Shown here: positions 3,753 through 63,124 of the stretch, piece after piece
How positions within the stretch are numbered: position 1 is the stretch's first letter
Layout: each line of letters begins with the position of its first letter
NCBI RefSeq assembly: GCF_037975245.1
Contig: NC_092569.1
Coordinates: 1,651,501-1,715,500, forward strand
Length of the DNA: 64,000 nucleotides
From: Apostichopus japonicus
Taxonomy: Eukaryota > Echinodermata > Holothuroidea > Aspidochirotida > Stichopodidae
Direction: 5' to 3'
Notes under the pieces: generated by a model
What the model saw: only the letters and a program-made list of their open reading frames with translations
Told to the model about the DNA's origin: nothing
Database searches by the model: none
Made by a program: the position numbers and the translations under genes

Positions 3753-3823
<71 letters not shown>
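3750..3823. repeat. TA microsatellite, tail of SINE copy A
   Basis: Almost pure TA dinucleotide. It directly abuts the end of the minus-strand SINE unit at 3824, so it looks like the expanded 3' tail of that SINE rather than an independent repeat. Confidence 0.85.
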
Positions 3824-3827
<4 letters not shown>

Positions 3828-4196
3828 GAAAATCGTAATGAGTTGGAAAATCAAGAACAGTGAAAAAACTTTCAGCCTCCACCGGGATTCGAACCACGGG
3901 CCTCCCGCTCTGTACGCGGACACCCTAACCACTAGGCTATGGACGCTGATTGTATGTCCAGAGGTTCGAAACCGGTAAGGAAGATCGTAATTCCACTGTA
4001 GGCGTTTGTCACCTATATCGAACAATACTAGTTCTGTTTTTGGTGACATATTTTGCCCTACTCTAGAGATCAAACATGATACTCTCCAACTCGAAAATCA
4101 TTTGTGATTCCTAAAGCCGGATCTCGAAAGAGATACTTTGAACAGACTTTATGTTAATGCAATGGAGGAAAACGACAAAGGCAAATGAATATATAT
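3824..4196 (-). mobile_element. tRNA-derived SINE, copy A of a tandem pair
   Basis: On the minus strand a tRNA-like head lies at about 3874-3947. It has an A-box-like stretch TAGCCTAGTGGTTAGGGTG and a B box GGTTCGAATCC, the two internal promoter elements of RNA polymerase III. The unit also has about 200 bp upstream of the head, a short body after it, and a TA-rich 3' end. The same unit recurs 373 bp to the right with few differences. This is not a working tRNA: the cloverleaf is poor and the unit is far longer than a tRNA. Confidence 0.75.
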
Positions 4197-4530
4197 AAAT
4201 GAAAATCGTAATGAGTTGGAAAATCAAGAACAGTGAAAAAACTTTCAGCCTCCACCGGGATTCGAACCACGGGCCTCCCGCTCTGTACGCGGACACCCTA
4301 ACCACTAGGCTATGGACGCTGATTGTATGTCCAGAGGTTCGAAACCGGTAAGGAAGATCGTAATTCCACTGTAGGCGTTTGTCACCTATATCGAACAATA
4401 CTAGTTCTGTTTTTGGTGACATATTTTGCCCTACTCTAGAGATCAAACATGATACTATCCAACTCGAAAATCATTTGTGATTCCTAAAGCCGGATCTCGA
4501 AAGAGATACTTTGAACAGACTTAATGTTAA

Positions 4531-5192: not shown

Positions 5193-8049
5193 TTAATCCA
5201 TGAATCGCAGGTAGTATAAAATCACAAGGCCAGCGAAAGTTGTACTGACAAACGGCCGAAACTGAGAATTAGCTCCATTCCGAGGATCTACGATGGTCTC
5301 ATTGCCGAACAGTCGTTCTTCAAATTCACTGAGTTGATCGAAAGTGACACAGTAGTCTGACGGACAAACGCACGTGTTAAGGCTCTCGTAGTTAAATCCG
5401 GGACCTTGGAAGTTATCAACATGAGCTAAGGATGGGTCGATGGCTTTTAATTCATCACGATCGTTGCAGCCGCTGAGAAAGCCAGTGCCACAGGAGGTGA
5501 CCATGTATCGCACCGAATAATCGTCTTGAACTGGAGAGAGAAAGTGTAACCGTCGGTTAACTGAGGCTTATGAAGTATATGAATGAGATAACCGGGGATG
5601 CAGGCTCTTCAAGAATGAATGCTATCAACATTATACAAACACGCAGTCAACAGACGCTGAAGCTTATAAAATGACACACTTACAAATGAAAGGAACACCC
5701 CCCCCCCTCCACCCCATCATGCACCCGATCACTACGAACCTGACCACAATGAACTAGAACAATAAGAGTGGCTGAAAGACAAGAAACGGTAGCAAAAGAG
5801 CATTGTAACAAGTTATGAGCTTAGCAATGGTATGTACAGACTTAAGATGGTCACTCCAAAGAGCCTTCTTCCAGATCTTAGGACCTTTGAAACAGATACA
5901 AGCCTGAGTGGAATTCAAATGATTTACAGCAATGCTAACAGAGTTGTGGTTGTGCATGGTCTAACGCTTGGAAAGGAACGGTTGCAGTTTGCCGAATAAC
6001 TATATCATAAATATTGAGGATTTTGAGTTTTAACGGAACGTGGATTACTGTGATATAAAGAGAGTAACTCTTTGTTATGAAAAAAACCTAAAGTTTCTGC
6101 AGTCGGGAAGGATATAGTAGGTTGCCGGACAGATTTACAGTAAGAAAAGTAAGGTAAGAGAATGGTAGTAGACAGAATGTAGAATTCTTTGTACAATGCT
6201 TATATATTTGTAGCCTATGATATAGCCTATATGATTTAGCTTATCTGTGTTGTAACCTATGCACCAACCATGAGAGTATAGCTAGACTTCTTTTTAAGGG
6301 GTACCCAATATTTTTCTAGCGGGGGGGGGGGGGGGGAGGGCGGCTGGCATGACCTATTTCTAAATATAAAGAAAATATTTTCTGACCGTTTTTTGGGGGA
6401 GGGGGAGGGCCTGACAGATATTTTTTGGGGAAATGCTTGCCACCGCCCCCCCCCCCCCGCCCCCAATGCCGAGGCTACCATTAATGCAGTACGGTAGTCG
6501 TTATACCATGGACCAGAGAGCCTAACCTCTTGATGAAAGGTGCTTCTCTCTTTGCAGTTTATTCCATGGGGTTTGCAGAAAATAGGAAGGGGTGTAATTT
6601 GTAGACCTACAATCAAAACTCTATAGTCCACTTCTGCTTCATTCCGTTTGGGTAAAAAAATATATACTTACATGAGAATTTCGATGCAATCAAAACACAT
6701 TTGTCCTGCAGTGTTGGGTGACATTTTTGAGTTGTCAGTTGCAGGTTGTTGAAAGCTATCTGGTTACAAGTGTTAATGTAGCTTTGATTGTGTGCGGTAC
6801 ACTCTTTCTTTATCCAATGATAGCATTCAAGTCCCTGAACTGCCAACAAAAAAAATAGTAATAATAATAAAAATAATAATAATTTTGATCACCGCTTCCC
6901 TTTTTGGTTTCCCGAAAGGAAAAACTAGCTTGTGAGGTGGACCGCGGATTGCAAAGTCGGTAATGAATATAAAGCGATTCGCAAAGTTGGTTATTACTAT
7001 TACGTTTAGATTCGTCCAAAACGGCAGCATACAGAAACGTTGTACTCAAAGCCGAAGCCAAAGTGAATTCATCAGGTCACACATCCGGAGCCTATACATG
7101 ATGAGTTCTTCACTACCGCCCCCGTTCCCTTTCGGAGAGACATTTCATACTGTAGTTTTTATTACCGAGACATGGTGAAAATTGTTTCATTTTCAATTCA
7201 ACTAATTAACATGATTATTATAGGAATATATATTCCCCAAGATCTGTTGATTTTTTTTTATACAAATATTAAAACCCTGCATAATTATACTCCAGCATGC
7301 TATTGGGAATATTTCAAAAGCATTTCAGTAAACATGATTAATATCATCAGTTTTACCTCCAAATATGTTACAAATCCAAATAATGGCCATTAATGTCCAA
7401 CTTTCTTGAAGAAGCATTTCTACAAGGGCTACCACTCTTACCACCACCAAAAAAAGATCTTGGTTATTTGGTTCAACAAAGCAAATATCAACAGGCCAAA
7501 ATATTCTGACTGTATATAGTCCTTCCTTCACTGTCCATTTTTTTCATATTTTGTATTGATTCCCAAGAGTGTGGCTCTTATATGTAACCGACCTTTAATG
7601 GGCAGCCAATAACGCCCCACCCCCACCCCCCCCCAATTAAAACAAAGAATATACAATATGTATACTCTCAACAACATTTCATATAGTACAATATGGGGAA
7701 CCAATTATCCAACTAAATTGACACGAATTGTGAACAGTTGCAGCTCCTGATGTTTGGAACAAACTTCCTACTGACGATAAAACAGCTCATATATTGTTAA
7801 GTCTTTTAACAGAGAACTTATGACTTGTCTGTACCCAAGAGCATTTTGTATACTCTTAGCACCACTGAACATTGCATGACTTTGGATATTAGTCAATATA
7901 TAAATTATTGATTGATTGATTGATTGCTTGATCGATCAGAGAAACCATTGAAAACTGACGCTTAGGCCGATATCCTACTGTACAGTAACTTACCAGGGAA
8001 TGAAGCCGATATGCAGAGGAGAATAATGTAGGTCAGCATTTTATTTTAT
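5193..8049 (-). CDS. secreted Ly6/uPAR-like protein, copy 1
   Basis: Minus-strand exons, 5' to 3': 8039-7994 (ATG at 8039; about 10 bp of leader back to an acceptor at 8049), 6839-6672, and 5530-5193 (stop). Splice phases agree (1, then 1), giving 183 residues. Exon 1 encodes a signal peptide, [15 protein letters not shown]. Exons 2 and 3 carry ten cysteines, five each, the usual count of a Ly6/uPAR (three-finger) domain. The last ones read CVCPSDYC, a variant of the family's CC-x4-CN ending. The C-terminus ([10 protein letters not shown]) is hydrophobic and follows small residues, suggesting GPI anchoring at the outer cell surface. N-glycosylation sites are visible at NQS and NET. Ligand and role are unknown. 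The family call rests on cysteine pattern and architecture; another small cysteine-rich secreted family remains possible. Confidence 0.72.
6250..6480. repeat. G/C-tract repeat in intron 2 of Ly6-like copy 1
   Basis: Long poly-G (about 6321-6336) and poly-C (about 6447-6460) runs face each other across about 110 bp. The same arrangement, with different tract lengths, lies in the matching intron of copy 2 (about 17440-17630), so it predates the duplication. The G runs could form quadruplexes. Sequence fidelity here may be poor. Confidence 0.55.
7735..7927 (+). mobile_element. LINE 3' end, degenerate, duplicon 1
   Basis: Plus-strand translation starts [14 protein letters not shown], which resembles the C-terminal tail of reverse transcriptases of CR1/L2-type non-LTR elements (pattern APxxWNxLP). 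Stop codons follow, then a 3' end reading TATATAAATTATTGATTGAT with a short ATTG repeat tail at about 7906-7927. Only the 3' end is present, as is usual for 5'-truncated LINE copies. The same fragment lies in duplicon 2, where it is interrupted by a later insertion. Confidence 0.65.
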
Positions 8050-8239
8050 CTGCGAACAGAACAGACAGAAATTATAATAAATAATAACATGGTAAAGATG
8101 AAAAAGTATAATTTAGTGTTTCAGATTTGACGCAGTAACAAGCTAGAATGTTCTAGGCTGTTTTAGAATAGCAAAGATATTTTACGGTTCTGTGAACTAT
8201 AGAAGGTCAATGTGTAGCCATTTTGTGTCCAAGATTTTA

Positions 8240-8600
8240 CATATATATCTTTATATATTCATTTGCCTTGGTTGTTTATTTCCATTTCATTTAACAGAGT
8301 CTGTTCAAATGATCTCTTTCGACATCCGGTCTTAAGATTCACAAATGATTTCTAGTCGGTTAGCATCACGACTAAGACCAAATACCATCACCAAAGAGAA
8401 CTGGCATTGTTCGATACAGGTATAGCAAAAAGCTTGCGGTGGAATGACAATTCCTTCCTTACTGGTTTCGAAACGCTACAAGGGGTGCCCATGGTTACTG
8501 AATGAAAGAGTTTTAAACAGCGTTATATCACCTTCAATCCCCCATGTTTTCACACCAGACCTTAACCATGCAAACAGACGCAAACAAAGCCGATATCTGA
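8240..8600 (+). mobile_element. diverged SINE copy lacking its tRNA head
   Basis: From about 8250 the plus strand follows the 5' portion of the SINE pair at 3824-4533, including AGTCTGTTCAAA and CTTACTGGTTTCGAAAC. The match fades before the tRNA-like A and B boxes. It is clearly more diverged than copies A and B are from each other. It has no counterpart at the matching place in duplicon 2. Confidence 0.6.
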
Positions 8601-9282
8601 AAATACGCCACTCTCAGAAGCTGAACTGAATATATAAATAAATATCAAAACATGTCACATGTATTTTATTGAGCGGCGCCTATTGTGCTGCTTTTTTTAG
8701 TAGAGTTTTCACAGTCGTTATTGATTCACACAGCAATATAACGCGCTTTATACGGAGGCTTGTGGTGTTGCCGTTTGAGGTTCTGCGATTGTGCGTTGTA
8801 ATGACTAGACTAGTTTTGGTGCGTGTATGTGACATTGGCTTATAAACTTGCACGGTAACTCTAAAATTTCATGGTCAGGATTAAATTCATTTAATTTTAC
8901 GTCAATGTCTAAAAAAGGTCGTAGACACGATAACTCAAAACGTCACAAACCTAATTTGTATGCAGAAAGTTTTGAGATACTAATTGAGCTAAAAATATCA
9001 CTCTAGCCCTTTTCTCCCCCCCCCCCCCTCCCATTCACAAAATTTGTGTCTTATAAAGCTATATGCATATATTGGATCAGAGTTGCTAAAACCAGAGACA
9101 GTCAGCCGCCGTAGGGTTCAAACTTAGTAAACAAAGCCATTATATATAACGCTTTGGGCATGATACGATATTTCTATAAGTTACAAGGCGCTCCATCGAA
9201 GAAACAAACAACAACCTAGAACTGTAGTCTACACGGTGACATCCCTTTGTTCCGAGGCTACACAGTATGGAAGCATTGGCAA

Positions 9283-9294
9283 TAATAATAATAA

Positions 9295-9325
<31 letters not shown>

Positions 9326-9329
9326 AAAA
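9283..9329. repeat. AAT trinucleotide microsatellite
   Basis: About 14 AAT units with one interruption, lying beside the candidate leader-exon donor site at 9347. Copy 2 has no such tract at the matching site (about 20,115). Confidence 0.85.
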
Positions 9330-9347
9330 CAAATTTATAAATCTTAC

Positions 9348-9470
9348 CGATATAACAGTGAATAGCTTGGCAAATTTGTCTTTCGTGATACCGACGAAAA
9401 TGAGGTGTATTTAATACCGTAATGAAACCATGACCAATATATATATATATTCCAGACTAACACATACTGC
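9348..9470 (-). other. candidate non-coding leader exon of Ly6-like copy 1
   Basis: On the minus strand this stretch ends TTATATCG and is followed by GTAAGAT, a strong splice donor. The coding exon downstream (8049) starts after TTCTGTTCGCAG, a strong acceptor 10 bp before the ATG. Both sites are kept in the second duplicon (donor at 20,164; acceptor at 19,154). The inference is a leader exon spliced to the signal-peptide exon. The 5' limit is not visible and is approximate. Confidence 0.35.
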
Positions 9471-9584
9471 GCAACTGCGGTGACTGGAAAATTTGATTCT
9501 TCGAAAAAACGGGAATGAGGTTGACCTGGGTACGGAGAATTCAAGGTGCCATAATATACACATATATACACACATACATGCATG

Positions 9585-9940
9585 CATATTATATATATAT
9601 ATATAGATATATATATTTATATAGATATATATATATTTATATATATATATAGATATATATAGATATAGAAATATAGATAGGCTATATAGACATATAGATA
9701 TATATATACATATATATATATAGATATATATTGATATAGATATATATATATAGATATATATATAGATATATATAGATATATATATATAGATATATATATA
9801 TATATTTATATAGATATATATATTTATATATATATATAGATATATATAGATATAGAAATATAGATAGGCTATATAGACATATAGATATATATACATATAT
9901 ATATATATATAGATATATATTGATATAGATATATATATAT

Positions 9941-10017
<77 letters not shown>

Positions 10018-10082
10018 TATATATCTATATGTCTATATAGCCTATCTATATATCTGTATCTATATATATATCTATATATATA
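9585..10082. repeat. TA-rich array with internal direct and inverted copies
   Basis: A 500-bp tract made of TATA, GATATA and TTTATA. A marker, AGATAGGCTATATAGACATA, occurs at about 9676 and again 187 bp later. Its inverse, centred on AGCCTATCTATA, follows at about 10,039. The array therefore has at least two direct units and one inverted unit. The long tyrosine/isoleucine frame across it is an artefact. Confidence 0.8.
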
Positions 10083-10124
10083 AACTGAAACTAAACTGAA
10101 ATATAAACTAAACTGAAAACGCAA

Positions 10125-10640
10125 TGAAAGGCTTTAAATAGAATTAATACCGGCATTAAATAGACCAATCGCATTAGCGAATTTTGAAGCTGTTATGCTC
10201 TGATTTTCGTCGAGAATCTTGTAGGTTATTGACATGTGTTCCCAATCCGATGTTTTACCAGTTCGCAATGCTTTGAACCGTTTTGTTAATCTTCGAAGAG
10301 CATTACGCTATGAAAAGTTTGGAAGACTCCTGAATGAAGATGGATGACCTAACGGGGAAAGTTTCGCGCCTGCGCAATAGCTGGAAACATGAAAGGAAGC
10401 TTGTCGATAAAATATTGCATATTATACCAAAGCGCAACTAAAGTTTCAGTGCCAACTAAACAAATATGGTCTATTTTATGCTGGTATTGATTCTATTTAA
10501 TGCCAGTATTAATACTATTTAATGCCGGTATTAATTATATTTAATGCCGGTATTAATTATATTAAATACCGGCATATGAAGCTGCATGGTGATTGGCTGA
10601 GAATTAATGCCGGTATTAAATAGAATTAATACCGGTTAGA
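10125..10640. mobile_element. probable MITE-like element with repeated ends
   Basis: The left end contains ATTAATACCGGCATTAAATA followed by GACCAATCGC. The right end contains GATTGGCTGAG and then the inverse ATTAATGCCGGTATTAAAT. Between about 10,470 and 10,640 the motif TTAATGCCGGTATTAA is repeated several times. Inverted ends with multiplied subterminal motifs are typical of non-autonomous DNA transposons. I could not fix a target-site duplication, so the borders are approximate. Confidence 0.5.
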
Positions 10641-11452
10641 ATTTACATTCGTACGGACATTTGATCAGCAATTATTCCCGTATGGCCTACCATATACGTA
10701 AACGGTTAATGCATACAAAATAAATATTTCTGCCGTCTCTTATTAAGTTGTGAGAAAATTTGGAACTAGTCCAACAAACTTGACAAAGCGCTATTGTTCT
10801 CTGCGGTATCTATATCCTCCCGAAATCCAAGCACGGCGGCATCATTGTTTACACAGACAAAGACCGCTATTCAACCTATTACTGAGCGGATTGTGCTTAA
10901 AAAAACCCTAACACTTTGACAAATTTCTATCTTACTAACCCTTCTAGCTATAGACTTGGTTTGAGTATTAGAATAAAGCTGATATTAAGATCTACTCAAA
11001 ATATTTTATTTCCAAAATTTTGGTTTAACTTTGTTTGATTCAAGAAGTATGAAAATACTACATTTTTAATTGTTTTTCCAAGCAAACCCAGGCTCTACTA
11101 TAAGAAACAGGCCAGTACCTAGTTATAAATACACTAGAAGCCCAACACATAAAAGATAACTACCCTGAAAAGATCAGGGCTATATAGAATTGGACATTTG
11201 AATTATCATCGGAATATTGCCGTCCAAAAACCAAGAAAATGCTGAAAAACTCTTCATTGTTTCAAATATCATATCACGGTCACCCTACCCCATTGCTCAA
11301 AAATGTCATAAATATGATGTTCTTTACAAGCTTCCGTCGTGCTGACGTATATGTGAGTATGCCATATTATAGGCGTTGACACATGCATCGATGTATATAT
11401 ATATAGCTTGCTGGTCACTTCGCCCAACAACCATTTCGCCCAACTACCATTT
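10641..11452. other. no recognised gene
   Basis: Unique-looking AT-rich sequence between the MITE-like element and the 36-bp minisatellite. No domain, RNA gene or splice-linked exon was seen on either strand. Confidence 0.45.
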
Positions 11453-12413
11453 CGCATGGTAGCCTGATAGCCAACAGGCTATATGTCATTTATGGTAGCC
11501 TGATAGCCAACAGGCTTTATGTGATGCATGGTAGCCTGATAGCCAACAGGCTTTATGTAATGCATGGTAGCCTGATAGCCAACAGGCTATATGTCATCTA
11601 TGGTAGCCTGATAGCCAACAGGCTTTATGTGATGCATTGTATCCTGATAGCCAACAGGCTATATGTCATGCATGGTAGGCTGATAGCCAACAGGCTTTAT
11701 GTGATGCATTGTATCCTGATAGCCAACAGGCTATATGCCATTTATGGTAGCCTGATAGCCAACAGGCTTTATGTGATGCATTGTATCCTGATAGCCAACA
11801 GGCTATATGTCATGCATGGTAGCCTGATAGCCAACAGGCTTTATGTGATGCATTGTATCCTGATAGCCAACAGGCTATATGTCATCTATGGTAGCCTGAT
11901 AGCCAACAGGCTTTATGTGATGCATTGTATCCTGATAGCCAACAGGCTATATGTCATTTATGGTAGCCTGATAGCCAACAGGCTATATGTCAAGCATGGT
12001 AACCTGATAGCCAACAGGCTTTATGTGCTGCCTGGTAGCCTGATAGCCGAACAGGCTATATGTCATGCATGGTATCCTGATAGCCAACAGTCTTTATGTC
12101 ATGCATGGTATCCTGATAGCCAACAGGCTATATGTCATGCATGGTAACCTGATAGCCAACAGGCTTTATGTGATGCATTGTATCCTGATAGCCAACAGGC
12201 TATATGACATTTATGGTAGCCTGATAGCCAACAGGCTTTATGTGATGCATGGTATCCTGATAGCCAACAGGCTATATGTCATTTATGGTATCCTGATAGC
12301 CAACAGGCTATATGTCAAGCATGGTAACCTGATAGCCAACAGGCTTTATGTGGTGCATGGTAGCCTGATAGCCGAACAGGCTATATGTCATTTATGGTAG
12401 GCTGATAGCCAAC
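11453..12413. repeat. 36-bp minisatellite with higher-order structure
   Basis: About 26 units of 36 bp. The constant core is CCTGATAGCCAACAGGCT; the linkers vary (GATGCATTGTAT, CATTTATGGTAG, GATGCATGGTAG). Two linker types tend to alternate, giving a 72-bp period in places. A rare variant with an extra G (GCCGAACAGG) appears at about 12,046 and about 12,371, each about 55 bp after the rare variant GTCAAGCATGG at 11,989 and 12,314. This shows duplication of a nine-unit block. Because 36 is divisible by three, the array reads as an open frame of a 12-residue repeat, but it has no promoter, splice signals or family match. Confidence 0.92.
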
Positions 12414-13260
12414 GAATGTTATAGAGCCTACAGACCCTCAACATAGGATTCGGCTTCAACAACTCCAGGGCCACACCCTCCCCTCCCCCTCTTAACAATC
12501 CTGGATGCGCTGAGCCATCTTAACAGCCACATGTACACATGAGAAAGGCAATTTTCTAGTAGCTTACACATCATGCCCTTTGGTTTTCCAACTATAAGAT
12601 TTTGTGTCAAGGTGGTTGTTTCTTTAATAATTTGTTGCTCTTTTAGCCTTAAAACTAGAACAAAAAGAAATTCTTAGAACAGTCATAATAACAAATCAAA
12701 AGGAAACTGAACTATTGTTTTCCATTGTGGTTAAAAGGAAACTCAGAAATGCAATGAATAACAACAATGGCTAATAAAATTACAAAGTAATGATTGGCAT
12801 ATTAAACATGTTTATTTATTTTTCCGTGCAGCGCTTGTTTTGTATTCACTCAGGTTGTTATTATAACACACATCCGTATTTCTAATAATTTCCAGAGTTT
12901 TTTCCATTATGACATAACTAGATAGGTATTTCCCCGCGTTCACCCTAGATTATTTACGTCATGCATGGAAACTTCCATACGTTGTATTCAATAGTTTCTT
13001 ATACTGGTTAATCTTGTAAGACAGTCTTTAATTGTCCAGAATACATAATGTATATACGTCTATTACACATTCAAAGTTTACTGTTCGATTGGTAATTGAG
13101 GGGGGAGGGGGGGGGGGTTATGCTGAATCACGGGGGTAATGAACCTAGGCGTATCCTATATGAATCTTATATGAAATAAGTACCAAATAAAGTGCTGTTA
13201 TCATGAAATAAACATGCTCAAGAGCACTGTACAAAAGAACCAATTCCTGGAATATAAAGG
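12414..13260. other. no recognised gene
   Basis: AT-rich DNA with one G-tract near 13,100-13,120. No coding exon or RNA gene was recognised. Confidence 0.45.
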
Positions 13261-13261
13261 A

Positions 13262-13645
13262 ATGAATGCCTATATGACATGCACATTTTGATGTTGAACG
13301 CGTGCGGAGCGCGCCAAAAATTTTGGTTATATTTTCCGTGTTATTACCAGCTTCCATATTGGTTATAATTATTTGGCAAGTCGTTACAATAATTACGATA
13401 ATAATAACATCAGTTTAACCATTGAAAAGCAAATTGCAAATTATTCTTCTTTCAGTAGGTGCCTGAAAAATTCTCATCATATTGCCCGAATTTTCACCAA
13501 AAAAATTGAAACACACAAAACAAATTTTTCTTCTTTCAGTAGTTGCCCGAAAAATTCTCAGCCTATTGCCCGAATTTTCACCAAAAATTTTGGTTGGGGG
13601 GGGGCTGCAGCCCCCCAGCCCCCCGCCTCCTACGCCTATGGTTCT
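13262..13645. mobile_element. dispersed repeat, copy related to 15899-16309
   Basis: Shares with 15899-16309 (opposite orientation for much of its length) the core around GCGTGCGGAGCGCGCC, the stretch CAGCTTCCATATTGGTTATA, and a G/C-rich end with GGGGCTGCAGCCCCCC leading to CTCCTACGCCTATGG. Inside, a piece containing AATTCTCA and TTGCCCGAATTTTCACC occurs twice. This looks like a non-autonomous element; its left border is not fixed by a target duplication here. Confidence 0.6.
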
Positions 13646-13971
13646 CTGTATTTAGAATTTCATCAAAGGGGAACTCTTTTGTTGTGTGTTGTGTGGTTTT
13701 GTGTATAGTAATATTATTTCCCTCTGTGGCATATGAGCACAATATAAAGAATAACAAAAACATTTTACAGCTTATACAAACACGACACTATAAATAGTGA
13801 TGACAAAATAACGTCACGAGGCTATTTACACGTACGCCATATATAAATATCTCTGATGTTCTATAGTACGACAAGAAAAACACAGATAGTGTATGTGACA
13901 CAAGATGTTATAAATAATCTAAAAAATAAAACTATTGTCTCCTGCATGAATCAACCTCGCAACGACCTTCC

Positions 13972-14378
13972 CTGCCCCACCTCCAACCTTCCTGCCGCTC
14001 ATCCAACCTTCATGCCCCTCATCCAACCTTCCCTGCCCTTCATGCAACCTTCCCTCCCCCTCATCCAATCTTCCCTACTACTCGTCCAACCTTCCCTCCC
14101 CTCATCCAACCTTCCCTTCCCCTTTCCACCCCTCAACCAACCTTCCCTCCCCCTCATCCAACCTTCCCTCCCCCTCATCCAACCTTCCCCCACCCCCTCA
14201 TCCAACCTGCCCTCCCTCTTATCCAACCTGCCCTCCCCCTCATCCAACCATTCCTACCTCTCATCCAAGCTTCCCACCCCCCTCATTCAACCTTCCCTCC
14301 CCCTCATCTAACCTTCCCTCCCCCTCAACCAACCTTCCCTCGCCTTAACCCAACCTTCCCTCCCCCTCATCGAACCAT
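13972..14378. repeat. pyrimidine-rich 21-bp minisatellite
   Basis: Roughly 20 degenerate units of CATCCAACCTTCCCTCCCCCT. One strand is nearly all C and T for about 400 bp. Open frames of Pro-Ser-Leu repeats on one strand and Glu-Gly-Trp repeats on the other come from the repeat. Such tracts can form triplex (H-DNA). Confidence 0.88.
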
Positions 14379-14389
14379 CCTGTTTCCAG

Positions 14390-14950
14390 AATTGTAATCC
14401 TTGTATATCTACTTACATGACTCCAGTCATTCAACAAACAAGAAGATTGTGCTGCCCTCACTACGCGTCGGATATGCGCTGCTAGACTACCAGTTATCCA
14501 TAAATAAGGCAATAACAGGCACAGCCTTTCTGTATTTATTTCTCACTTATATTTGTGTAGTAAAAACTGTAAAACAAGATAAACGATACATAATAATAAA
14601 AACTGAAACACTATGAAACTAATCACTAAACTAAATACGGTAATGATTGCACTCAGAGTAGTGACGTGTTAACATTGTCGGTTATGACACATATTATAAC
14701 TATGACTGAGTATATGATAGGGACGAGAATAAAGTCGATTAAAAATCTAATAACCTACTACAAAAATGTTCCTTCAATTAATATAATAGTACAATAATAA
14801 TGAGAAATTATTTTTACGACACTTAAGCGACCACAAATGTGGGAGAAACCCGCAAAGGCTAATAGATTACAACTTACACGTCGGATGGCTTCCAATTGAA
14901 CATTTTAACTCAAATTTGGAATATTTTTAATTTAAGAAAGTCATTTCAGA
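14390..14950. other. no recognised gene
   Basis: AT-rich, with no supported exon or RNA gene. It separates the pyrimidine-rich array from the tRNA-like SINE head. Confidence 0.4.
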
Positions 14951-14979
14951 TGAGAAATCCGTAGATTTCTCTTGGACGA

Positions 14980-15062
14980 AAAACCCACCTTACAGGCTAT
15001 GACCCGAACCTCCCGATTGCTAAGCCTCATTGGTTCAAATGCCACTGCCTTTATCCACTCGG
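14980..15062 (-). mobile_element. tRNA-like SINE head fragment (Leu/Ser-like)
   Basis: The minus strand reads TAGCCGAGTGGATAAAGGCA, a good A-box of the Leu/Ser tRNA type, followed about 40 bp later by GGAGGTTCGGGTC, a degraded B box. A TA array adjoins. A related A-box fragment (GGCCGAGTGGATAAAGGC) lies near 20,622-20,642. The lost B-box consensus and poor stems argue against a working tRNA gene. Confidence 0.5.
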
Positions 15063-15063
15063 C

Positions 15064-15103
<40 letters not shown>

Positions 15104-15180
15104 TATATATATAGTTATATATATTTAGTTATATATATATAGTTATATATAAATATATATATATAGTTATTATATTATAT

Positions 15181-15249
<69 letters not shown>

Positions 15250-15250
15250 G
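15063..15250. repeat. TA microsatellite at the left edge of duplicon 2
   Basis: Interrupted TA array with AGTTATATATAT units on its left side and pure TA on its right. It ends about 40 bp before the stop codon of the second Ly6-like gene, matching the array before copy 1. Confidence 0.85.
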
Positions 15251-15288
15251 GCTCTTTGTATCATTTGAAAAAATTACATTAAAAAAAA

Positions 15289-18200
15289 TTATCCCATAAA
15301 TCGCAGGTACAATAAAATAAAAAGGCCAGCGAACGTTGTACTGAAAAATGGCCGAAAATTAGATCCACTGCCGAACAGTTGCTCTTCAAATTCACTGAGT
15401 TGATCGATAGTGACACAGTAGTCTGACGGACAGACGCACGTGTCAAGGCTCTCGTAGTTAAATCCGGGACCTTGGAAATCGTCAAAATGAGCTAAGGATG
15501 GGTCGATGGCTTTCAATTCATCACGATCGTTGCAGCCGCTGAGAGAGCCAGTGCCACAGGAGGCGAACATGTATCGCACCGAATAATCGTCTTGAACTGG
15601 AGAGCGAAAGTGTAACCGTCGGTTAACTTAGGCTTATGAAGTATATGAATGAGATAAACGGGGATGCAGGCTCTTCCAGAATGTTATCAAAATTATGCGA
15701 ACACGCAGTCAAATGACGCCGAAGCTTATAAAATGACACACTTAGAAAAGAAAGGACCCCCACCCACACCCACCCACAACGCACCCGATCACTACGAACA
15801 TTGAACTAAGATACATGAGACGGGTTTAAAGACGAGAAACGTTAGCAAAAGAGCATTGTAACAAGTTATGAGCTTAGCAATGGTATGTACAGACTTAAAA
15901 CCACAGGTGTAGGAGGCGGGGGGGGGGTTGGGTTCGGGGGTGGGGGCTGCAGCCCTCCCAGCCACAATTTTTCGTGAAAATTCGGGCAATATGCTGAGAA
16001 TTTTTCGAGCACTTACTGAAAGAAGAATAATTTGCAGTGTGTTTTTCAATGGTTAAACTTATTACTATCATTATTGTTGTAACGACTTCCCCATATTATT
16101 ATAACCAATATGGAAGGGTAATAAGACGGAAAATGATTGTATATATGTTATTGGCATGTGATGTAATAACCGATGAATGCCTATAAGATATGCACATTTA
16201 ACATGTTGAACGCGCGCGGAGCGCGCGAAAAACTTTGGTTATATTTTTCGGGCAACTCGTTACAGCCCCCCCCCCCCCCCCCAATCAAATTAGGCTCCTA
16301 CACCTATGCTTAAGACGATCACTCAAAGAGCCTTCCAGATCTTAGGACCTTTGAAACAGATAAAACACTGAGTGGAATTCACGATTTAAATGAATGCTGA
16401 GAGAGTTGCTGAAATCTAGTGTTGTGGTTGCGGACGGAGTAACGATTGGAAGAAAATTCAATTGAAACATTTATAGATAGACCCCATAGCAAAACTGGAA
16501 CGGAAGGGTTGCAGTTTTATGACTGTCGATATCATTAATATTGAGGATTTGGAGTTTTAACGGAACATGGATTACTGTGATAAAGAGAGTATAGCTATTT
16601 GTTATGTAAAATGAATGAATTGTCTGCAGTGCGGGAAGGATAGTTGTTGGCCGGGCAGATTTACTGTAAGAAGAGGTAAGGTATGATAATGGTAGCTGGC
16701 TATGTATAGAATGCCCTTGTTCTTTCCTGGGTGACTTTTCTTAAAAAAGTATATAGAATGGAGAATTTTTTTTTGGCTGGTGACCAATCAGAAAATCAAA
16801 TTCTGAAGAAACTTTGCTGCACACATGTAGTGCTGCTAAGTTAGATTATCATCAAGAGTTTGGTAACATGAGAACAAGTTGATGTGGTTGTTGTAGATGT
16901 CAAGACCCTTACAGCTTGATGGGATGTGGTATAAAGAGTAAATGAAATATTTTTCTTTTATAACAACGGACATATGCCGGACGTTTCATCTCTTGATACT
17001 TTTAAGACCCTATGTATAAGGAACACATTCTCTGCAAAGTTGTTCTAAATCAATACGTGTTTTTTACACAGTATACAATTGTGTAAGAGACTCTTGTGTG
17101 TGTGTGGGTGTGAGGGTTTACATGATTAATCTGAAAGAAGTGGTCACGTGTCAAACAGAGATCACCTTGATTCGGCGATCGCTTAGCCTATACAAAGTTA
17201 GGTGGAAGATTCGAGCTTTAGTTAAAATAATTGAAGAAAAGTCTGGTACATTATATCTTCTCAAGGATTCTAGAAAAACAAGGTCAAGTTAGAGATATTG
17301 TGAATAGTAGGCTACTGTAGGACCAAGTATACCTGTGATGTAGCTAGCTATAAGCAGATGTATGCCTATGATGTATGCCTATTTGTAGCCTATCGGATAT
17401 AGCCTATGTGATTTAGCCTATCTGTGATGTAGCCTATGCATCAACCATGGGCGTATAGCTAGACTTCTTTTTTTAGGGGACCCAATACCCTTCTAGCGAG
17501 GGGGTGGGGGCAGACATGACTTCTAAACGTAAAGAACATATTCTCCAACAGTTTTTAGGAGAAGGGGATCGAGGGGCCTGACAGATATTTTGGGGCCAGG
17601 ATTCAACCCCCCCCCCCCCCCACCGCCGAGGCTAATGCAGTAGCCGTTATACCCTGGACCAGAGAGATAAACTTCTCGAAAGGCACTTTTCTCTTTGCAG
17701 TTACTTCAATTGGGTTTGCAGAAAGTAGGAAGAGGTGTAATGCTGTAGACCTACAATCAAAACTCTATAGTCCACTTCTGCTTCATTCCGTATAGGTAAT
17801 AAATATATACTTACACGAGAATTTACTTGCAATCAAAACACATTTGTCATCTGGTGGGTCACATTTTTGAGTTGTCACGTTGTTGTTCACAGCTATCTTG
17901 GTACAAGTGTCATTGTACTTTTGATTGTGTGCGGTACACTCTGTTTTTATCCAATTATTGCATTCCAGTCCCTGAACTACAAAACAATCAAATAAAATAA
18001 TAATATTGATCACCGCTTTCCTTTATGGTTTACCGAAACCAAACAAAAAGTGATATCACTCTTACCGAACTTGCAGATTGAGGGGGAGGGGGAGGGAGAG
18101 GGGAGGGGAGGGGAGGGGGAGGGATTGCAAAGTCGGCAATGACTATATAGCGGATCACAAAGCCTCGGTAATTACTATTACAGTTGAATTCGTCTAAAAC

Positions 18201-19153
18201 GGCAGCATAAAGAAACGTTGTACTCAAAGCCGAAGCCAAAGAGAATTAATCAGGTCACACATTCGCAGTCTATGCATGCTAAGTTCTGAAATTTGGAGCA
18301 AACTTCCTACTGACGATAAAACGTTGTAGTGATGTTAAAACTCCTATAGTGTCAATACTTAAAGGATTGGTTCAGTTGTCATACATGTTTATGTTATATG
18401 AAAGAGGATAATAAAAGAAACACAATGGTGAAAAAACTGTTCAAATATCTTTTTCGGTTAAAGAGATATTCAAGTGTAAAGTTTTATCAAATTGTGTAGA
18501 AACTGCTGAAATCTGACTAGCTGTGACGTCACATCCTCACATTCCTGAAAAGTCTTTGTTTTATTCTCTAAATACTTTGTGAGATTTCATGACTCTCAAC
18601 CAAAAGATATATCAGGAGATCTCATATTTGTCCAAAGGAAGTATTTGAGATTAAACATCTTAAGATCATTTGATTATATTATTTTCAAATGTGTCAAAAA
18701 AATGTAAATTCTTTTTAAAGAAATATATTCACAAATGTTAAGGAAGTGAGGATGTGACATCACACCCTCACAGTTAGTCTTTCTACACCAGTCGTTTTCA
18801 AAGAAATTTTGATATCTTCAAAGTGTCATATCTCCTTAACAGAGCATGCCATCATGGTAGTTTCTTCACTGTTCTTTTTGTCTTTTTGTGCTCTTTCGTA
18901 CAAAATAGACATGTCAAACACCTGAACCAATCCTTTAAGACTTGTTTGTTCCCATGAGTATTTTCTTGACTCTTAGCGCGCTGAACATTGCATGACTTTG
19001 GATATTAGGTACTATATAAATTATTGATTGATTGATCAATCAGAGAAACCATTGAAAATTGACGCTTAGGCCTATATCCTATTGTATAGTAACTTACCAG
19101 GAAATGAAGCCGATATGCAGAAAAGAATAATATACTTCAGCATGTTATTTAAT
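15289..19153 (-). CDS. secreted Ly6/uPAR-like protein, copy 2
   Basis: Minus-strand exons: 19143-19098 (ATG at 19143; leader to 19153), 17976-17815 and 15596-15289 (stop). Phases match copy 1, giving 171 residues. The signal peptide is [15 protein letters not shown]. All ten cysteines of copy 1 are kept, as is the CVCPSDYC ending and the hydrophobic tail ([10 protein letters not shown]). Exon 3 lacks ten codons that copy 1 has just before the tail, removing the NET glycosylation site. Exon 2 is two codons shorter and gains NDT and NVT sites. The frame is intact and both splice pairs are good, so this is probably a functional paralogue rather than a pseudogene. Function is unknown; cell-surface display is inferred from signal peptide and tail. 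Confidence 0.72.
15899..16309. mobile_element. TTAA-flanked element inserted in duplicon 2
   Basis: The ends are near-inverse: CCACAGGTGTAGGAG on the left and CTCCTACACCTATG on the right. Both sides carry TTAA (15895-15898 and 16310-16313). Duplicon 1 keeps the unfilled site (CAGACTTAAGATGGTC at about 5839). So this 411-bp element entered one copy after the duplication. It is related to the repeat at 13262-13645. TTAA targets are known for piggyBac and Kolobok families; which one applies is not determined. Confidence 0.75.
17440..17635. repeat. G/C-tract repeat in intron 2 of Ly6-like copy 2
   Basis: Counterpart of 6250-6480, with shorter G runs and a poly-C run at about 17,608-17,622. It shares flanking words such as GGGCGTATAGCTAGACTTCT. 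Confidence 0.5.
18078..18123. repeat. GGGGA purine tract
   Basis: Imperfect GGGGAGGGGA repeats on the plus strand. Copy 1 lacks the tract at the matching place, so it expanded after duplication or was lost there. It is quadruplex-prone. Confidence 0.7.
18285..19037 (+). mobile_element. LINE 3' end, duplicon 2, split by an insertion
   Basis: Same fragment as 7735-7927: [12 protein letters not shown] at about 18,287, then a break, then the 3' end and ATTG tail at about 18,940-19,037. The break is the element at 18363-18934. Confidence 0.62.
18363..18934. mobile_element. TTAA-flanked MITE nested in a LINE fragment
   Basis: 572 bp with perfect 13-bp inverted ends, AGGATTGGTTCAG and CTGAACCAATCCT, flanked on both sides by TTAA (18359-18362, 18935-18938). 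The inside also shows a looser inverted layout: GTGACGTCACATCCTCAC near the left and GTGAGGATGTGACATCAC near the right. No frame for a transposase. It is absent from the matching LINE fragment in duplicon 1. Confidence 0.85.
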
Positions 19154-20740: not shown

Positions 20741-21566
20741 AAACGACATGATAATATTTTTTCAAAGTTACTTTCTTCGAGCTATTTCACGATGCGTCAT
20801 CTTCACTAACACTGATATTTAATGGGGAAAGAGATATAATTTTATTTAAACTGGTAAATTGAGCTTTACGACAGGAAATATCTTGAAATTATGACATGTA
20901 TCACATTAGCATCATACATAAAATATACATTTTGAAAGCACTTCAAACAGAGATATTTAAATAATAGTTTGCTCAATTAATTACACAAAAATATTCATCA
21001 GCTAACGATAAACAAATGAGATTCAAACTTAGTAATACAAAAATTGGTATCAAATACTACATTGCAATAATTTGTATTTATTTCAATTTAATTAGGCTAT
21101 ACGTTAGACCTAGTATATGAGGCAATATGTGGGTAACGTATAAACACAATTTCGCTCAACTAGATCTAACAACAATATCAACGACAAACACCTGCTGTTG
21201 TTTACGAAATGAAAATAAGTTACAAAACAATCTTTGCAGTCGAACCGATTAACCAAAGATATAAACACTACAACTGTAAATTGCGTCAGTCCAGTACAGT
21301 CATCTAGTATTACCAGGGAGTTGTTATGGAAACTCCCTGGTATTGTATTACTAAGGTATTTACATAGAACTATGTGCTGCCAGTCCTGATAAGCCCTGTT
21401 TGAATCCCCGGCTGGAATTATACTTGGCTCAATAGCTATTCAAAATGGTTGCGCCCATAAACTGGGTTGGTCAATATTACTAGCTGCGATCTGACAAGAG
21501 AGAATTAGGTTAAGCGACTATCCAACGTGTTTCATATTTACTAACTTAATTACTGATATTATAGAG
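20741..21566. other. 5' flank of TMEM65
   Basis: AT-rich, no other gene seen. It must hold the TMEM65 promoter and 5' leader, but no TATA box or initiator can be singled out. A short hairpin with exact 12-bp arms (TACCAGGGAGTT / AACTCCCTGGTA, 8-base loop) lies at 21311-21342. Confidence 0.4.
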
Positions 21567-24500
21567 ATGTTGAGGCACGGCTCGGTTATTAATTTTCTAC
21601 GCAATTTTAAGTCAGGCGGACAAAGGTTTGTTGCAGCTGGAAATGCAGACATATTGAAACGGTCGGTGGTATCTCCATTAGGATCCTACGTAAAGCCTAA
21701 CGTTAGGCATAGTGCCAAAATAACCCATTCCGGTTGCTATGGCTTTGCAACCACTTGCAAATCTTTTTCCACTACGTGTAGAATCACAAATTTATTCTCT
21801 TCAAAAAGAGTTGATTTTGGCAAAAGTCAAGTTCTTCCAGAAACTACATTTGCAGTTTATCATATTGTACAAGCACAATTCAGAGACCATAACTATAAGT
21901 CTAACTTTACATTAAGTCACACTAGGCCTACTAACATCCCTACCAGTACTACTACTAGTCCTGGTACTAGTGTTAGAGCTATAAATGCTCAAATCAGACC
22001 TGGAAATGATGGACAATATAGGAACTGTTCTCCTCGAGTTCTCAGTGACGCTCCTCAGTCAAGGTCCACTCTTAAACTTATGCCACACAATACAGTGAAC
22101 AGGCTGAATTTGCGACATCTCCTCTCAAAGAATGTAAATGTCAATTATCCAGAGGCTTATGGAAGGATATGCAGATGTTATCATTCCCATTCAGATGGTA
22201 CCGAGTTTGAACTTCACCCGAACACTTTCAACTCGCCCGAGAAAACAAGGAAATTTGTCAAGAAGCTTCGGAGCAAGCAGCGAGCTCTACTGTTGACTGA
22301 GATACAAACTTTGAATCAAGAGCTAAATCAAGATGGTAGGTGTCACTGCCTGACCAGTGCATTTTTTTGCGTCATGTCAGCTCAATTCAAGATTTATTGG
22401 GTAATCCTATTATGAACATTTGACACAGATCCAGGGATCTTACAAGGCATAGTAAAGGCTTCATAAATTGACGCACCTTCGTAATTGACGCACCTTCATA
22501 TATTACTGGCAACGATACAGCGGGCAACTTACACTCTTTGCAGCAAAGCCGAGTTACATATTTTATGAGTTTGAATCCATTTCAGCAATGTGCTGATCAA
22601 TTTGTGGTTTTTTAAGCTTTTAACATCCCTCCCCCCAATTTTGCACATATTTTTGGGATTTGGAAATCTTACTCCCTAAAATAACCAATATTACCACAGC
22701 ATGATACCACTATACTCTCTAGGACTTGACCTGCCTAAGCTTAGGGGCTCAGAGCATAGCAATCAGTATTCAGTATTGTATGTTGCATATGCACAGAATA
22801 ATAAATATTTTGAAATCATGACATTTCTGAGGGAGCACACATGAAAAACACATACAGTTGAGTGATTGGATTTTTCCTTGATAGACATTGTTGATCAAAT
22901 ACTTAAGTGCGTCAATTATGAGCCCACCATGCTATAGTATATATACAGTAGGCCAATGTTACACAATGTAAAATTCATGATATTACCATAGCAATGCAAA
23001 GTTAGCCCAAATTGCATTTTCAGAAACGTAGGCCGCTAGTTATATGATACAATATAATTTGCAAAAGGAGGTTAAAAAGTGATCTATCCAGTAACAAGGA
23101 ACCTAGTGGATAGTCTTTACAAGGCAGTGGCATCAGAAGCAATGAAACCTTGTCTTGGGAAGTTTGTTGGTTTGAGCTCTTGGCAGAAACACTGATTTTG
23201 TTATAATCCTTGATTGATAATCATGGGCAGTAACTTTCTCTCAACATTTCAGATCAGAATATGCTGCTACCGCCATCTCGTGCACAACTCAGACTTGGTA
23301 ATTATGTCTCCAAGAACTTCCTTCTTTTTTTTTGATCAGAAGTAGAACTTAGATTTACTGTATTGTATGGATTATGTGTTGATAATCTGTGCCTACCCCA
23401 AGGCATGATGTTTCACACTCTATACAAATTTTCCATCCAATATCTAATCTATTTCTTTTTCCTTGATTAACTGAACCAACAACTAATTTATGCAGTTATC
23501 GAACACTGTAGGCTGAGCTGTGCTGTATATACCCACAATCCTGTAACTTTGATCCCCTCTTGATAAAGAGGAGAGACCAACAAGAGAAATTTGTTGGAAC
23601 TACCTATATATACTGCACATCAGTTACTGAGTGGAATGTACATTTTGTATACTGTAGCATTGAATTTACTCCCATACTCCCAGCAGCCTCTAACCACAAG
23701 AGATGATATGCAGTACGTAAAAACCATTTAAATAAGAGGTGTTATCTCTCTAGGTTCATCAATAATGTTAGGTTGGGCTGAAATTAACCAGCAGAAAACT
23801 GGTAGTATGTGAGCTACTGGACAAACAATTTTTATACTGTGAGATAGACATATATAAATAGGCTCCTGATGGTCTGCCTTCAATAATGGGACAAATTCCA
23901 CATGGTCACCCTTATCGAGTTTGGGTCATTCTCTCTTGAAAGATTTGCGACAAAGTCCATCAGCAAGATTTTTCCATGACTCTCAGAAATATCATATTAA
24001 ATAGAAGTCTGGTGTGTAAGTCTTAAGTCTTGACTATCATTCAGGCTTTCATCAGTGTACTCTGGCTAGAATGCTTTACCATCTCTATCACATGTTTATC
24101 TCTTTTCATTTGACCTCAGTCACTCTTAACAATGCTGTTCCTTTCGTTGGTTTTGGCTTCCTGGACAATGCCATTATGATCATAGCGGTGAGTCATAAGT
24201 AGAGCTCTGTCTAAGGAATTCTCCTTAATATGTAAAATCTGTTTTAACCATTGCTGCTGAATTAGCATTGCAATGGACTTAAAGGCATTGAAGACTCGCC
24301 CCAAACAGCGTGCGACCATCTGAAAAAGTTAACTTTCCGTTGCTTGCAAGTGATGTTTTGTTCGTGTCGCTACAAAATGCAGACAGTGCAGTAATGAAAC
24401 GTGATACCTTGTTATCTTTAGCTGGAACCGAGATGTCCATCGCTGTATTGTTTGTACACTGTGCTGTGGGTATTGACCGCAGCTGTATGTACTGTCTGTA

Positions 24501-56035: not shown

Positions 56036-63124
<7,089 letters not shown>

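What the first reader, a model, noticed from the sequence alone, without database searches (positions are those of the whole stretch)
5193..19153. Tandem pair of undescribed-looking secreted ten-cysteine (Ly6/uPAR-like) genes
Seen: two intact three-exon coding chains with signal peptide, ten conserved cysteines and a hydrophobic tail. Known: Ly6/uPAR proteins are small, GPI-anchored or secreted, and often expand in tandem. Inference: a lineage-specific cell-surface family. The ending is C-V-C-P-S-D-Y-C-V, not the usual CC-x4-CN, so a profile search may miss it.
Basis: partly seen in the sequence, partly recalled or inferred. Interest (0 to 1): 0.7.

Follow-up and report, generated by a model that had tools for sequence, protein, structure and literature searches.

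The report
Ly6-like surface-protein genes, sea cucumber
Two neighbouring intact genes, with a third copy just outside the window, appear to encode small cell-surface proteins distantly related to the Ly6/CD59 family in what is very probably a sea cucumber genome; this is a fairly ordinary kind of local gene family, with an unusual repeat that changes the length of the stalk.

Summary
Two three-exon genes lie on the minus strand at 8039-5193 (A, 183 aa) and 19143-15289 (B, 171 aa), with GT-AG splice sites, two phase-1 introns and 82% identity. A-B gaps are multiples of three in 3 of 3 exon gaps but 5 of 37 intron gaps. The genome (671,581,487 bp) matches the Apostichopus japonicus assembly in size. 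A third intact copy (C, 230 aa) lies about 20 kb outside the window; it has nine in-frame copies of an 18-bp stalk unit (A one, B none). A Ly6/uPAR relationship is the best reading: gene layout, intron between Cys5 and Cys6, cysteine order, and weak Pfam hits of A, B and C to Ly6-type families, against 0 of 9 cysteine-fixed shuffles. Membership is not shown: all scores are below cut-off, the domain is long (110-112 residues), Asn after Cys10 and adjacent Cys8-Cys9 are absent, and a CD59/LYNX1 profile gave no signal. Exon-wise fold predictions were uninformative; expression is untested. I file it as a divergent variant of a known kind. The stalk-length variation is the most interesting part.

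The parts
7994..8039 (-). Gene A exon 1: start codon and most of the signal peptide (phase 1 donor GTAAGT)
6672..6839 (-). Gene A exon 2: end of the signal peptide and first half of the cysteine domain, Cys1-Cys5
   Evidence: copies found
5193..5530 (-). Gene A exon 3: Cys6-Cys10, stalk with one 6-aa repeat unit, hydrophobic tail, stop
8040..8049 (-). Short 5' UTR piece between a conserved AG acceptor (8051-8050) and the ATG of gene A; implies an upstream non-coding exon
   Evidence: aligned with copy B; inference, no RNA evidence
19098..19143 (-). Gene B exon 1
17815..17976 (-). Gene B exon 2, end of the signal peptide and Cys1-Cys5
15289..15596 (-). Gene B exon 3, Cys6-Cys10, stalk without the repeat unit, hydrophobic tail, stop
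19144..19153 (-). Short 5' UTR piece after the AG acceptor (19155-19154) of gene B
   Evidence: inference

Best explanation
A, B and C are three intact paralogous genes of a small local family in a sea cucumber (very probably Apostichopus japonicus). Each encodes a secreted precursor that loses its signal peptide, folds as a divergent Ly6/uPAR-like disulfide domain of about 111 residues, and is held on the outer cell surface through a stalk of variable length and a C-terminal GPI signal. The domain most likely works by binding or modulating a partner protein at the cell surface. The genes, frames and stalk repeat are shown from sequence; the fold is weakly supported; GPI anchoring, partner and tissue are inferred.
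For: Intact frames, GT-AG sites and the same exon layout in A and B and C. A-B exon gaps 3 of 3 in frame against 32 of 37 frame-breaking intron gaps; A-C gaps 144 and 3 nt, B-C gaps 3 and 174 nt, all multiples of three. LU genes are described as three exons (signal peptide, then two for the domain), phase-1 introns, the inner intron at the tip of loop 2, and often clustered (PMC6600238, passages and one section); here both introns are phase 1 in A, B and C and the second lies between Cys5 and Cys6. Pfam hits of the trimmed domains: A QVR E 0.77; B PLA2_inh 0.014, QVR 0.078 (and LysM 0.19); C QVR 0.032, UPAR_LY6 0.061; the QVR match ends at profile position 85 of 86, at Cys10, in all three. Controls: 0 of 9 cysteine-fixed shuffles of B hit a Ly6-type family, full length or trimmed (same nine). 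Both ends hydrophobic in A, B and C. Echinoderm precedent: 48 LU-domain proteins in Asterias rubens, nine of them without a GPI site, and Lystar5 reported to bind an integrin alpha-8-like protein (PMC11595613, passages).
Against: No Pfam score reaches its curated cut-off; full-length A had no hit at all, and 2 of 9 full-length and 1 of 9 trimmed shuffles hit unrelated families at similar E-values, so no single hit is significant. PDB sequence searches gave 0 hits up to E 10. A profile of human CD59 and LYNX1 scored A and B no better than their shuffles (797 and 675 of 1000 cysteine-fixed shuffles scored as high). Asn after Cys10 is missing and the domain is long. The tail ends in RFMD in A and C and RFMG in B, charges that are not ideal for a GPI signal (recalled rule). 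No expression evidence.
Confidence: 0.68

Rival explanations
1. The genes encode an unrelated ten-cysteine surface protein that only converges on the Ly6 cysteine order.
For: Below-threshold profiles, no gain over shuffles with a CD59/LYNX1 profile, long domain (110-112 residues), missing Asn after Cys10 and a residue between Cys8 and Cys9.
Against: Gene layout with two phase-1 introns and the inner one between Cys5 and Cys6; the three paralogues hit Ly6-type families while 0 of 9 shuffles do.
Confidence: 0.22
2. The copies are recently duplicated genes now drifting as pseudogenes.
For: Bootstrap omega reaches 1.20 at its upper 97.5% bound; in the A-C comparison dN is about equal to dS in the domain (0.034 and 0.030).
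Against: Three of three copies have intact frames and splice sites, coding gaps are multiples of three, and B has kept its frame at dS of about 0.19 from A and C.
Confidence: 0.1
3. The proteins are secreted, not anchored: the C-terminal hydrophobic stretch is not processed as a GPI signal. (Compatible with either reading of the fold.)
For: Charged residues at the very end of the tail; secreted LU proteins exist (PMC6600238, passages).
Against: All three keep a hydrophobic tail of similar sequence (STTFAGLxILxYLRFM) after a hydrophilic stalk with small residues; 39 of 48 starfish LU proteins had predicted GPI sites (48 less the nine without, PMC11595613).
Confidence: 0.2

Closest known systems
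Ly6/uPAR (LU) domain proteins such as CD59 and LYNX1 (Pfam UPAR_LY6 PF00021)
   Same: Signal peptide, ten cysteines, three coding exons with phase-1 introns, inner intron between Cys5 and Cys6, hydrophobic tail, clustered genes
   Different: About 111 residues from Cys1 to Cys10 rather than 60-90; Cys1-Cys2 spacing of 7 residues against 2 in CD59; Cys8-x-Cys9 instead of adjacent; Val instead of Asn after Cys10; scores below cut-off
Quiver/Sleepless-type Ly6 domain (Pfam QVR PF17064)
   Same: The one profile hit by all three trimmed paralogues, matching to the profile end at Cys10
   Different: Scores 11.3 to 15.7 bits against a cut-off of 27.3; the match starts at or next to the second cysteine, not the first
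Starfish lystars (Asterias rubens three-finger proteins; PMC9410279, PMC11595613, passages seen)
   Same: Echinoderm three-exon gene (Lystar5) with predicted signal peptide and GPI site; a helix in loop III is reported for Lystar5
   Different: No lystar sequence was compared here; the passages seen mention no stalk repeat

Membership tests
Ly6/uPAR (LU) domain | Ten cysteines in the mature domain | tested here: met
   Ten mature cysteines in A, B and C, first at residue 21
Ly6/uPAR (LU) domain | Three exons, phase-1 introns, inner intron at the tip of loop 2 | tested here: met
   Phases 1 and 1 in A, B and C, inner intron between Cys5 and Cys6; definition from PMC6600238. That Cys5-Cys6 brackets the tip of loop 2 is recalled
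Ly6/uPAR (LU) domain | Asn directly after the tenth cysteine | tested here: not met
   Val in A, B and C
Ly6/uPAR (LU) domain | Domain of 60-90 residues | tested here: not met
   Cys1 to Cys10 spans 112, 110 and 111 residues in A, B, C
Ly6/uPAR (LU) domain | Score above the curated Pfam cut-off | tested here: not met
   UPAR_LY6 14.2 bits against 24.8 (C only); QVR at most 15.7 against 27.3; PLA2_inh 16.5 against 22 (B only)
Ly6/uPAR (LU) domain | Three-finger fold | tested here: inconclusive
Ly6/uPAR (LU) domain | Disulfides 1-5, 2-3, 4-6, 7-8, 9-10 | not testable with these tools
   Needs protein chemistry or a structure
GPI-anchored protein | C-terminal hydrophobic stretch after small residues | tested here: inconclusive
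   Hydropathy peaks 2.05 (A), 2.25 (B), 2.28 (C) in the last 30 residues; no GPI predictor was available
Quiver/Sleepless (QVR) | Score above the curated cut-off | tested here: not met
   11.3, 14.4 and 15.7 bits against 27.3

The most novel reading that the evidence does not exclude
A holothurian Ly6-like cluster in which an in-frame 18-bp repeat sets the length of the stalk that presents an otherwise similar binding domain (none, one and nine units in B, A and C). Amino-acid changes between A and B are concentrated in exon 2, which would code the first finger, and in the tail. Such a length-variable, fast-changing surface family could serve individual or gamete recognition, or immunity, and would then be polymorphic between animals.
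Probability: 0.12. Interest if true: 0.6.

Novelty: new variant of a known kind. Interest (0 to 1): 0.36.

Why it matters
Ly6/uPAR-type proteins are used across animals for complement control, adhesion, receptor tuning and fertilisation, and the echinoderm members are little studied. This cluster gives three intact, closely related genes that profile searches at curated cut-offs miss, with a natural series of stalk lengths on similar domains. If expressed, it is a convenient case for testing what stalk length and first-finger changes do.

Tried and rejected
Sequence relatives: PDB sequence searches with A and with an A+B profile gave 0 hits; NCBIfam, which covers bacterial and archaeal annotation, gave 0 families for 2 proteins; viral contigs and prokaryote genome contigs gave no relative (42 and 36 pattern matches, none confirmed). 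A profile of two human LU proteins did not separate A and B from shuffles. Exon-wise folds were too poor to search with, so no fold search was made. A motif scan of the window printed nine rows, of which two were the exons 3 of A and B; I judged the other seven chance or low-complexity by eye. A scan of 214 kb around it found only A, B and C above HMMER's inclusion threshold; other tblastn matches there had E 0.36 or weaker, apart from C's repeat matching itself. The genome-wide UPAR_LY6 exon search gave one place, on contig C8 (25.2 bits, just over the cut-off, with a stop reported inside the matched frame). My first look missed the matched frame; on re-reading its minus strand shows an exon of ordinary Ly6 look (LQCYSC...), so it is a separate, more typical candidate and not a copy of this family. 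The H. glaberrima genome preprint PMC13228809 had 0 occurrences of the five terms asked, ly6, upar, three-finger and cd59 among them. Paper searches listed no title that reports this cluster, but each showed only its top rows (20 of 23, 20 of 205, 12 of 16, 15 of 80, 12 of 79, 12 of 1,073 papers), so absence from print is not claimed.

My first exon coordinates were off by one at exon ends and gave broken frames; one search corrected them. My first joining of C missed the exon-2 donor; one search corrected it.
Full report
Observation. The two coding chains are real. On the minus strand gene A uses 8039-7994, 6839-6672 and 5530-5193 and gene B 19143-19098, 17976-17815 and 15596-15289; both are open from ATG to stop (183 and 171 aa), with GT donors, AG acceptors and both introns in phase 1. 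After the signal peptide each has ten cysteines at matching places; with 82% identity over 171 aligned residues that match is not strong evidence by itself. Exon identity is 0.87, 0.85 and 0.91; intron identity 0.60 and 0.83. Gaps between A and B are 3, 3 and 30 nt in exons (3 of 3 multiples of three); in introns 32 of 37 are not (14 of 16 and 18 of 21). The intron-1 alignment is poor, so its gaps are approximate. dN is 0.115 and dS 0.188; bootstrap omega has median 0.62 and a 95% range 0.35-1.20, so constraint is likely but not proved by this measure. Between A and B, dN is high in exon 2 (residues 19-71: dN 0.181, dS 0.155) and in the tail (147-183: 0.241, 0.340) and low in residues 72-146 (0.046, 0.117). 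An AG acceptor conserved in both copies ends 10 nt before each ATG, so a non-coding first exon is likely (inference).

Where it is. The window is G000:C9:1651501-1715500 of a genome of 671,581,487 bp in 35 contigs. The published Apostichopus japonicus assembly is 671.60 Mb with 34 scaffolds (PMC10344927, passages). I infer that host from the match in size; nothing in the tools names it. An IFT172 exon in the window (60563-60919; PDB 8bd7_S, E 7.7e-21) fits a ciliated eukaryote.

A third copy. The exon-3 DNA of A matched three places genome-wide (four rows, the third copy in two pieces) and the exon-2 DNA three, all on C9: A, B and C (the tool calls such counts lower bounds). C has exons at C9:1632010-1631965, 1630805-1630641 and 1629502-1629021 on the same strand, no internal stop, 230 aa, both introns again phase 1. 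Its second donor is GTGAGT. C is 94% identical to A (182 aligned residues; dS 0.035) and 80% to B (171 residues; dS 0.193), so A and C are the recent pair and B the older branch. A scan of 214 kb (100 kb before the window, the window, 50 kb after) with tblastn and two paralogue profiles found only these three above the profiles' inclusion threshold. Genome-wide protein and QVR searches did not complete, so distant relatives in this genome are not counted. A genome-wide UPAR_LY6 exon search gave one place on another contig, C8, which on re-reading shows an exon with the ordinary LxCxxC start; it is a different, more typical gene candidate.

The stalk repeat. C's extra length is nine tandem copies of an 18-bp unit (TRF period 18, 9.0 copies, 89% matches) coding DPRNGA-like hexapeptides between the cysteine domain and the hydrophobic tail. 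By the alignment A has one unit and B none (48- and 58-residue gaps against C). At the DNA level the A-C gaps are 144 and 3 nt and the B-C gaps 174 and 3 nt, all in frame.

What it is related to. Published LU genes typically have three exons, one for the signal peptide and two for the domain, phase-1 introns, the inner intron at the tip of loop 2, and often occur in clusters; the domain has 60-90 residues, ten cysteines, and Asn invariably after the tenth (PMC6600238, section 2 of the paper read). The gene layout fits; length and the Asn do not. The spacing in A is C-x7-C-x10-C-x14-C-x7-C-x21-C-x7-C-x31-C-x-C-x4-C-V; B and C differ by one residue in the third or fourth interval (B 13 and 6, C 14 and 6). 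A larger Cys3-Cys4 spacing has a precedent in flatworm members (PMC3812095, passage). Pfam full-length scans: A no family; B PLA2_inh 0.035 and QVR 0.2; C QVR 0.085 and UPAR_LY6 1.2. Trimmed domains: A QVR 0.77; B PLA2_inh 0.014, QVR 0.078, LysM 0.19; C QVR 0.032, UPAR_LY6 0.061. All lie below curated cut-offs. That PLA2_inh, QVR and UPAR_LY6 belong to one Pfam clan is recalled. Controls: nine shuffles of B with cysteines fixed hit no Ly6-type family (0 of 9 full length; 0 of 9 when the same nine were trimmed), but unrelated families appeared in 2 of 9 and 1 of 9 at E 0.04-0.21. A and C were not shuffled. Single hits are thus meaningless; recurrence on one kind of family in three paralogues, which are not independent, is moderate support. 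As a positive control CD59 and LYNX1 pass the UPAR_LY6 cut-off. A profile of these two did not prefer A or B over shuffles (797 and 675 of 1000 scored as high). PDB sequence searches found nothing.

Fold. Exon 3 gave mean pLDDT 38.6, exon 2 50.8, with two rows each. Neither says anything about a three-finger fold.

How it probably works. Shown: intact paralogous frames, a hydrophobic N-terminus, a ten-cysteine domain, a stalk of different lengths, a hydrophobic tail; the chains of A and B after residue 18 are acidic (pI 4.96 and 4.41). Inferred: secretion, GPI anchoring, and a disulfide domain that binds a surface partner. In the starfish Asterias rubens 48 LU-domain proteins were found, nine without GPI sites, and Lystar5 is reported to bind an integrin alpha-8-like protein (PMC11595613, passages); four lystars were among surface proteins of coelomocyte or coelomic-epithelium fractions (PMC13409769, passages). 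An adhesion or immune-cell role is plausible but unproven here. N-glycosylation sequons differ (A: 33 and 148; B: 37 and 48).

Verdict. The features are real genes. They work like, and probably descend from, Ly6/uPAR proteins, but tested defining features (length, Asn, score) are not met, so I do not file them as established members. Local expansions of such genes are well known, which keeps interest modest; the stalk-length series and the profile-evading domain raise it a little.

Noticed in passing
window 3816-4488: Two direct copies (identical over the 300 nt compared, spacing 373) each hold a tRNA-Cys gene with anticodon ACA (minus strand 3873-3947 and 4246-4320).
   Followed up: no
window 11329-12493, 13994-14407, 24949-25595, 27539-28021: Minisatellite arrays with periods of about 36, 21, 31 and 44 bp; the 36-bp array is open from stop to stop for 246 aa (11407-12147).
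   Followed up: no
window 21495-22415 and 31468-31875, + strand: Open frames that may belong to a TMEM65 gene divergent to gene B: the second matches Pfam TMEM65 at E 0.0086, below cut-off; the first had no Pfam hit and is linked by recollection only.
   Followed up: no
window 50598-50876 and 51158-51610, - strand: Ankyrin-repeat exons (Pfam Ank E 6e-09 and 2.4e-07).
   Followed up: no
window 60563-60919, + strand: Exon of IFT172 (PDB 8bd7_S, E 7.7e-21); neighbouring open frames at 60009-60290 and 61723-62007 may belong to it (recollection).
   Followed up: partly
L008 2522-3003 (G000:C9:1629021-1629502): In-frame 18-bp tandem repeat, nine copies, inside exon 3 of the third gene copy; polymorphism between animals unknown.
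   Followed up: partly
L025, minus strand of about 1401-1750 (G000:C8:28890900-28891049): A more typical Ly6-type exon (LQCYSC start; UPAR_LY6 25.2 bits, just over cut-off) elsewhere in the same genome.
   Followed up: partly
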